In this document: piece after piece, positions 1-597 of the stretch | How the letters are laid out: the number at the start of each line of letters is the position of its first letter | How positions within the stretch are numbered: position 1 is the stretch's first letter | DNA from: an uncultured Holophagaceae bacterium | GTDB lineage: Bacteria > Acidobacteriota > Holophagae > Holophagales > Holophagaceae | Direction of reading: 5' to 3' | Length of the DNA stretch: 64,000 nucleotides | Assembly: GCA_903857495.1 (NCBI GenBank) | Contig: CAIOFF010000059.1 | Coordinates: forward strand, 1-64,000 | Notes under the pieces: model-generated | What the model was told of the DNA's origin: nothing | Database searches by the model: none | The model's input: the letters and a program-made list of their open reading frames with translations, nothing else | Program-made: the position numbers and the translations under genes

Positions 1-125
1 AGCTGCTACAGATCCTGTCGGTCTCCGTTTTCGAGAAAATCGAGCTACGGCGGGCCTTTGCGAAGGAGGAAATCCAGATCCACGAGGACCGCTTCTCTAA
101 ACAACTGCCATTGTTTGACTTTTAA
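1..125 (+). CDS. C-terminal end of an IS4-type transposase (partial)
   Basis: The window opens inside a reading frame. Codons from position 3 run to a TAA at 123-125 and give 40 residues that begin LLQILSVSVFEK and end KQLPLFDF. From memory of the family, an LLQIL-x-FEK segment followed by a polar linker and a QL-x-LF tail is the usual C-terminus of IS4-superfamily DDE transposases. The catalytic DDE residues lie outside the window, so activity cannot be judged. The bases after the stop (about 126-141) probably contain the right end of the insertion sequence. The left end is not visible, so the terminal repeat cannot be paired. Confidence 0.6.
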   Translation, partial: LLQILSVSVFEKIELRRAFAKEEIQIHEDRFSKQLPLFDF

Positions 126-157
126 CCGGACACTAGTGAAACAAGATAAAAGACCTA

Positions 158-597
158 ACACCGATAAACACCGATAAAAGCTGATTAAAAGCTGAAAAAG
201 AATTACTTAATAGATATTGATAGTTATTTTTTACCTGAGCATCGGCCAGACTCCGCTGAAAAGGCTCTCCACGAAGGACACGAAGACGCCCTGCGGGCGC
301 AGGAAGCACACGAATGCGCCCGGACTCACCCTGGGCATCCCCAAGGGGGCGGCGGCTGGCTGCGGCCCCAAAAAGCCGTTCCAGCCGCCGCCCCCTTGGC
401 CGGTCGCACGCGACCGGGGGCCCCAGGCCCGGATGCCCTGTCGGCGCGATGACTGGGCCTTCGTGTCCCTTTGGGTCAGTTCTTCGTGTCCTTCGTGGAG
501 ATCCTTGAAGCCCCAAATGGGCGGAGCAAGGCCGATAACCAGAATTTGTTATTTCCTCTATCGGTGTTCATCAGCTTTTATCGGTGTTCATCGGTGG
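158..597. repeat. Nested inverted-repeat element, non-coding
   Basis: This roughly 440-bp stretch has no convincing gene. It is built from three pairs of perfect inverted repeats, one inside another. The outer arms are 167-185 and 570-588 (19 nt, AACACCGATAAAAGCTGAT and its complement). The middle arms are 267-286 and 481-500 (20 nt, containing CACGAAGGACACGAAG). The inner arms are 341-359 and 381-399 (19 nt, containing GGGGGCGGCGGCTGG). A further perfect 7-bp hairpin sits at 400-417 and a small one at 287-299. The outer and middle arms are themselves short words in tandem (ACACCGATAA twice; CACGAAGGA then CACGAAG). The left 200-240 part is AT-rich, unlike the rest. It lies between a transposase tail and the 3' end of an SDR gene. 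It could be a non-autonomous element or a structured RNA; the function is unknown. Confidence 0.85.

What the first reader, a model, noticed from the sequence alone, without database searches (positions are those of the whole stretch)
158..597. Three-tier nested perfect inverted repeats in an otherwise empty intergenic region
Three pairs of perfect inverted repeats of 19, 20 and 19 nt are nested around nearly the same centre (167-185/570-588, 267-286/481-500, 341-359/381-399), with an extra hairpin at 400-417. Chance cannot plausibly give this in 440 bp. The arms are made of different words of quite different base composition (AT-rich outer, mixed middle, GC-rich inner), as if separate short palindromic elements had inserted one inside another, or as if one long RNA fold were being kept. 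It lies beside a transposase end, so a mobile origin is possible.
Basis: seen in the sequence. Interest (0 to 1): 0.7.

Follow-up and report, generated by a model that had tools for sequence, protein, structure and literature searches.

The report
Mobile hairpin element inside another palindrome
The nested inverted repeats are a 310-base non-coding mobile element, one of about 40 copies in this Geothrix genome, that jumped into the middle of an older palindromic repeat, which explains how such Russian-doll palindromes are built.

Summary
The inverted repeats are real and at the stated coordinates, but the three tiers are two things, not three. The middle and inner tiers (plus the 400-417 hairpin) belong to one non-coding element, window 234-543: 14-bp terminal inverted repeats (CCTGRTTATCGGCC), about 40 matching places in this 3.7-Mb Geothrix genome, and found in many other Geothrix species. 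It has 8-bp target duplications (12 of 30 copies match at 7/8 or better, against 0.23% of mismatched pairings) and empty sites in sister genomes, so it is a MITE-like transposable element. The window copy has ATTTTTTA/ATTTGTTA at its ends. The outer tier is a separate dispersed repeat: inverted arrays of a 10-nt word (ATCGGTGTTC) around an AT-rich centre, usually without the element, with the same word in several phyla. The element prefers palindrome centres: 7 of 33 full copies lie inside inverted tandem-word arrays made of different words (null 1-2%). Its fold is kept by compensatory changes without a one-strand G-U bias, pointing to a DNA-level hairpin, or arm correction, rather than one RNA. 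The neighbouring transposase end is an unrelated later insertion. The transposase that moves the element was not found. Function of the outer arrays unknown.

The parts
3..125 (+). C-terminal 40 aa of a transposase (LLQILSVSVFEKIELRRAFAKEEIQIHEDRFSKQLPLFDF*); IS reaches to about 138. Not part of the nested unit
   Evidence: translation; G029 ortholog lacks it and starts to match at about 139. No Pfam match for so short a piece; transposase identity (IS4-type) by recollection only
157..225 (+). Outer repeat A, left half: inverted array ACACCGATAAACACCGAT plus AT-rich spacer
226..233 (.). Left target-site duplication ATTTTTTA
   Evidence: 7/8 match with 544-551
234..543 (+). MITE-like element (core), 310 bp; contains the middle and inner tiers
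   Evidence: about 40 matching places in own genome, relatives, 8-bp TSD statistics, empty sites
234..247 (+). Left terminal inverted repeat CCTGAGCATCGGCC
530..543 (-). Right terminal inverted repeat GGCCGATAACCAGA
267..286 (.). Middle tier, left arm (CCACGAAGGACACGAAGA, two 9-nt words)
   Evidence: helices 3 and 4, 97% of cells paired
481..500 (.). Middle tier, right arm
333..340 (.). Stem enclosing the GC-rich hairpins, left side (pairs with 431-438)
   Evidence: helix 7
431..438 (.). Stem enclosing the GC-rich hairpins, right side
   Evidence: helix 7
341..399 (.). Inner GC-rich hairpin (arms 341-359/381-399); strongest covariation
   Evidence: helix 8: 11 of 16 pairs with changes on both sides
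400..417 (.). Small hairpin CCGGTCGCACGCGACCGG
   Evidence: helix 10, conserved with compensatory changes
544..551 (.). Right target-site duplication ATTTGTTA
552..597 (+). Outer repeat A, right half: ATCGGTGTTCATCAGCTTTTATCGGTGTTCATCGGTGG
   Evidence: L042 ortholog

Best explanation
A 310-bp non-autonomous, MITE-like transposable element (234-543) inserted, with an 8-bp target duplication, into the AT-rich centre of an older dispersed palindromic repeat 'A' (about 157-225 plus 552-597), so that the arms of A now form the outer tier and the element's own stems the middle and inner tiers. SHOWN: the copies, terminal repeats, 8-bp duplications, empty sites in sister genomes, A without the element and the element without A, over-representation of the element inside palindromic arrays of different words, and covariation of its stems. 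INFERRED: a DDE-type transposase acting in trans on the 14-bp ends (8-bp staggered cut); palindrome centres preferred because they are AT-rich, extrude as hairpins or are bound by a host protein; copies tolerated mainly just behind genes; the element's own hairpin acting as DNA (extruded or single-stranded during replication or transposition), not as a dedicated RNA.
For: About 40 matching places in the own genome, many at contig ends; 19 of 60 relatives searched have a match, all in the same genus. TSD: >=7/8 identity in 12 of 30 copies for length 8, null 0.23%, no comparable signal at 5, 6, 7, 9, 10 or 11; window copy 7/8. Empty sites: L009 in G029 with a single target copy AAGGAAAA; also L003, L010, L126, L122 in G022/G029/G030. 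A is independent: 125 hits of its word against 0 in the control, paired arms 60-100 bp apart mostly without the element. Locus L137 (own) has A alone; its ortholog L154 in G029 has A with the element. L032: element inside an arm of A with perfect TSD TCAGCTTT. 14 of 36 own copies with an intact end touch or lie inside A; 7 of 33 full copies from several species lie inside inverted tandem-word arrays of different words, null 1-2%, direct repeats 0. Covariation: 93% of cells paired, 29 pairs with changes on both sides against 15.6 in shuffles, 0/500; slid controls 34-43% paired.
Against: No transposase flanked by these ends was found, so mobilisation in trans is inferred. Only 12 of 30 copies keep a near-perfect duplication; some nested copies (L027, L154) show none. 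The window locus itself has no empty site: the one ortholog seen (L042) is already filled, so the insertion predates that split. Some flank pairs used in the nesting test come from related genomes and are not fully independent.
Confidence: 0.88

Rival explanations
1. A structured non-coding RNA (or attenuator/terminator) kept by selection; the nesting is one long RNA fold.
For: Very stable fold on both strands, compensatory changes in stems, position close behind genes with 20 of 56 copies between convergent genes against 7 of 49 gene pairs in the window.
Against: Mismatch types show no clear one-strand preference: inner helices 38 G-U against 28 A-C cells, 23 against 18 columns. Both orientations occur, copies move and are absent from orthologous sites, no Rfam match. 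The outer tier does not belong to the conserved fold.
Confidence: 0.08
2. The whole 440-bp unit (A plus core) is one composite mobile element.
For: The combination recurs at several loci (L001, L006, L022, L027) and the G029 ortholog keeps it.
Against: Most A copies have no core and most core copies no A; duplications lie at the core ends; L137/L154 differ by the core; outer words differ between species.
Confidence: 0.03
3. The arms are kept alike not by selection but by template-switch (quasipalindrome) correction during replication, the element being a passive MITE. (A rival on the fold only; compatible with the mobility explanation.)
For: Compensatory changes symmetric between strands; near-perfect arms in GC-rich hairpin 8 (97% paired).
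Against: Loops and the middle word are also conserved (CACGAAG, GCCCTGCGGGC), which arm correction alone does not explain.
Confidence: 0.35

Closest known systems
MITEs of bacteria (e.g. Chunjie of Geobacter uraniireducens, QMITE2 of Coxiella, BrickBuilt of Porphyromonas gingivalis; review PMC10969869, PMC4596501)
   Same: Short, non-coding, terminal inverted repeats, direct target repeats, multi-copy, intergenic, fold into stem-loops; BrickBuilt carries a minisatellite
   Different: GC-rich rather than AT-rich; interior stems covary across a genus; preferred insertion inside other palindromes; no parent IS identified
Insertion sequences that target REP palindromes (IS1397 and others; PMC1525189)
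   Same: Mobile DNA landing in intergenic palindromes
   Different: Here the inserted element is a small non-coding one, and the targets are long inverted tandem-word arrays of several different words
Paired tandem octa-/heptanucleotide sites of Geobacter metallireducens (classes 1-3, PMC2700814; class 2 consensus TCTCCGTS[Y])
   Same: Outer tier A: 8-10-nt words in tandem, in pairs on opposite strands, variable spacing, intergenic, IS found near some of them
   Different: Different word (ATCGGTGTTC); the proposed IHF/HU binding of the Geobacter sites is a hypothesis in that paper and was not tested here
REP/REPIN elements with RAYT transposases (PMC3116915, PMC2817692)
   Same: Many intergenic palindromes per genome
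   Different: No RAYT (PF01797) gene in this genome; the core makes 8-bp duplications

Membership tests
MITE (core, 234-543) | Short and non-coding, multi-copy | tested here: met
   310 bp, about 40 places in own genome; length indels along the alignment, no gene called inside apart from one weak overlapping call in L043
MITE (core, 234-543) | Terminal inverted repeats | tested here: met
   14 bp CCTGRTTATCGGCC at both ends
MITE (core, 234-543) | Target-site duplication of fixed length | tested here: met
   8 bp, 12 of 30 copies >=7/8, null 0.23%
MITE (core, 234-543) | Insertion polymorphism / empty sites | tested here: met
   L137 against L154
MITE (core, 234-543) | Ends shared with an autonomous transposon | tested here: inconclusive
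   no pair of these ends around a transposase in the own genome (draft, breaks at repeats) or in fetched loci; exact ends rare in 18 relatives
REPIN/RAYT | Cognate RAYT (Y1_Tnp) gene | tested here: not met
   PF01797 absent from own genome, present in 5 of 14 control genomes
Paired tandem-repeat sites as in Geobacter (outer tier A) | Tandem 7-10-nt words in inverted pairs at variable distance, many intergenic copies | tested here: met
Paired tandem-repeat sites as in Geobacter (outer tier A) | Sequence identity with the published classes | not tested
   supplementary alignments could not be read; consensus TCTCCGTS[Y] differs from ATCGGTGTTC
Paired tandem-repeat sites as in Geobacter (outer tier A) | Binding by IHF/HU or another regulator | not testable with these tools
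   needs footprinting
MITE (outer tier A) | Target-site duplication / clean empty sites | tested here: not met
   at the loci examined, absence in G003, G022 or G030 includes tens of bp of flank, and no duplication is seen
Structured RNA family | Covariation | tested here: met
Structured RNA family | One-strand wobble preference | tested here: not met
   38 G-U against 28 A-C cells in inner helices, 30 against 41 in terminal stems

The most novel reading that the evidence does not exclude
Two classes of palindromic DNA, 8-bp-duplicating elements with CCTGRTTATCGGCC ends and inverted tandem-word arrays, insert by preference into each other's centres, because a DNA hairpin or cruciform is what the machinery recognises; Russian-doll palindromes are then the expected product of a palindrome-centre rule, and the covarying stems are kept as DNA structures. 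(Elements with these ends carry an array just inside the ends: CCACGAAGGACACGAAG here, ACCACAGATGACGCAGATTCCGCAG in L122/L126, AACCGCGAATGACGCGAAAGG in L142.)
Probability: 0.3. Interest if true: 0.65.

Novelty: new variant of a known kind. Interest (0 to 1): 0.45.

Why it matters
It turns an odd nested palindrome into an ordered series of events with a testable rule (insertion at palindrome centres), gives Geothrix a mobile element family that fragments its assemblies, and ties the outer arrays to a poorly understood class of intergenic repeats seen in several phyla, noted earlier in Geobacter as hypothetical regulator sites. If the hairpin is recognised as DNA, the element is a natural test bed for structure-directed transposition.

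Tried and rejected
RAYT/REP origin: no PF01797 gene. Autonomous partner by its ends: only isolated or 200-430-bp pairs; PF01609 gives one transposase, without these ends. Outer repeat A as a duplicating transposon: empty sites imprecise. Adjacent IS as the source: absent from the ortholog. Plasmid or phage origin: no match. Literature by sequence string: no hits. Integron attC sites were considered for A because of the paired arms, but not tested.

Full report
OBSERVATION. The three perfect inverted repeats and the extra hairpin are at the stated coordinates. The region folds far better than shuffles on either strand, carries no Rfam family and lies between the end of a transposase (stop at 123-125) and a short-chain dehydrogenase gene (620-1438 minus). 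The window starts contig C59 of a 70-contig, 3.70-Mb genome.

TWO ELEMENTS, NOT THREE. A search of the own genome with 148-607 gives about 40 distinct places with the stretch 234-543 or part of it, many at contig ends, and separate short hits to the outermost arms. Copies aligned at their ends share CCTGRTTATCGGCC ... GGCCGATAAYCAGG. The middle arms (267-286/481-500), the inner hairpin (341-399) and the 400-417 hairpin occur together in the aligned copies (26 copies; L279 lacks part of the small hairpin), hence are one element. The outer word is another family: ATCGGTGTTCATCRG with up to one mismatch has 125 hits in the genome against 0 for the reversed control, arranged as a left inverted array, usually 60-100 bp of mostly AT-rich DNA and a right array, with 1 to 7 tandem 10-nt units per arm, usually without the inner element.

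THE INNER ELEMENT MOVES. For 30 full copies from the own genome and relatives, the 8 bases next to the left end and the 8 next to the right end match at 7 or 8 positions in 12 cases; mismatched left-right pairings do so in 0.23%; no other length from 5 to 11 shows a comparable signal. The window copy has ATTTTTTA (226-233) and ATTTGTTA (544-551). Joined flanks of seven own insertions were searched in six sister genomes: uninterrupted sites exist for L009 in G029 (with one copy of the target, AAGGAAAA), L003 in G022 and G030, L010 in G022, and for the related elements L126 in G029 and L122 in G030. Some of those sites are diverged around the junction; L009 is the cleanest. Elements L122 and L126 have the same ends with perfect 8-bp duplications AAAGTGAA and AAGGGTTT and other interiors, so a set of non-autonomous elements uses these ends. 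By sequence the core was found only in this genus among 60 relatives and not in plasmids or phages.

HOW THE NESTING AROSE. The element sits inside A in the window and in its G029 ortholog (93% identity), which lacks the IS to the left; the IS is therefore unrelated to the nested unit, most likely a later insertion. At another locus the own genome has A alone (L137) and G029 has A with the element (L154). In L032 the element lies in one arm of A with a perfect TCAGCTTT duplication. Fourteen of 36 own copies with an intact end and flank touch or lie inside A, while A repeats make up only a few kilobases of the genome (estimate). Across species 7 of 33 full copies are flanked by an inverted repeat outside the element, made of several kinds of word (CACCGATAAACACCGAT, GACAGGATTAACAGGATT, CCACAGATTTCACAGATT, CCGCGAATGGCGCGAAT), against 1-2% of mismatched flank pairs, and none is flanked by a direct repeat. 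Several nested copies (L001, L069, L296, L032) keep the 8-bp duplication at the element ends. The simplest reading is preferential insertion at palindrome centres. Whether the preference is for AT-rich loops, extruded hairpins or a bound protein is not known.

THE FOLD. On 26 copies (mean pairwise identity 72%, minimum 60%) 93% of cells pair, 29 of 82 pairs change on both sides (15.6 expected, 0/500 shuffles), and sliding the partner destroys pairing (34-43%). If one strand were kept as RNA, G-U on that strand should outnumber A-C; the counts are 38 to 28 in inner helices and 30 to 41 in the terminal stems. That favours a DNA-level structure or arm-to-arm correction over a dedicated RNA, but does not exclude transcription. 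The 56 copies tested lie between predicted genes (one, L043, overlaps a weak call), 20 between convergent ones against 7 of 49 gene pairs in the window (simple codon-score gene calls).

THE OUTER REPEAT. Its exact 18-mer ATCGGTGTTCATCGGTGG is present in 21 of 61 Holophagaceae genomes and in genomes labelled Leptospiraceae, Latescibacterota, Lentisphaeria, Bryobacterales, Phycisphaerae, Deltaproteobacteria and others, several times as an inverted pair and sometimes mixed with kindred words such as ATCTGTGTTC; a few single hits there may be chance. The nearest published description found is in Geobacter metallireducens: tandem 7-9-nt repeats in pairs on opposite strands, hypothesised to bind IHF/HU (PMC2700814). 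A is not shown to transpose: at the loci where relatives lack it, flanks are missing too and no duplication is seen. Its function is unknown here.

LIMITS. The mobilising transposase was not found; the genome is a draft that breaks at these repeats; coordinates of A ends are approximate; copies share ancestry, so shuffle counts are not probabilities.

Noticed in passing
L205:3000-6300 and L181:6800-8000; also G024:C1 around 1,719,000 and G091:C4: In Geothrix genomes with few copies, the outer word A clusters between dTDP-rhamnose (rml) polysaccharide genes; perhaps carried with, or used to shuffle, such clusters.
   Followed up: partly
L120, L122, L126, L131, L133, L142: The genus is full of kindred inverted tandem-word arrays (CACGAAGA, CACAAAGAA, CACCAAGA, CAGATGACG, GGGGATAACAGGGATGAA, GCGAATGAC words), all with the pattern of an 8-10-nt word repeated in tandem and inverted at the other side.
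   Followed up: partly
L122, L126, L132, L133: Second group of elements with the same ends (CCCGATTATCGGCC) and, in L122 and L126, perfect 8-bp duplications; 200-434 bp, with an interior unlike the core.
   Followed up: partly
L131:1780 and L373 near its end: The same sequence starting TGTCTTTCCGGCAGCACTGCC interrupts a core copy at the end of contig C64 and lies at the end of contig C29: probably the end of another insertion sequence.
   Followed up: no
L130:603-675, L137:966-1030, L095: The number of 10-nt units per arm of A varies from 1 to 7 between copies, so the arms may expand by slippage.
   Followed up: no
G000 contig ends (L004, L007, L011, L013, L015, L017-L021 and others): Many core copies lie at contig ends; the element is a main cause of assembly breaks in this genome.
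   Followed up: no
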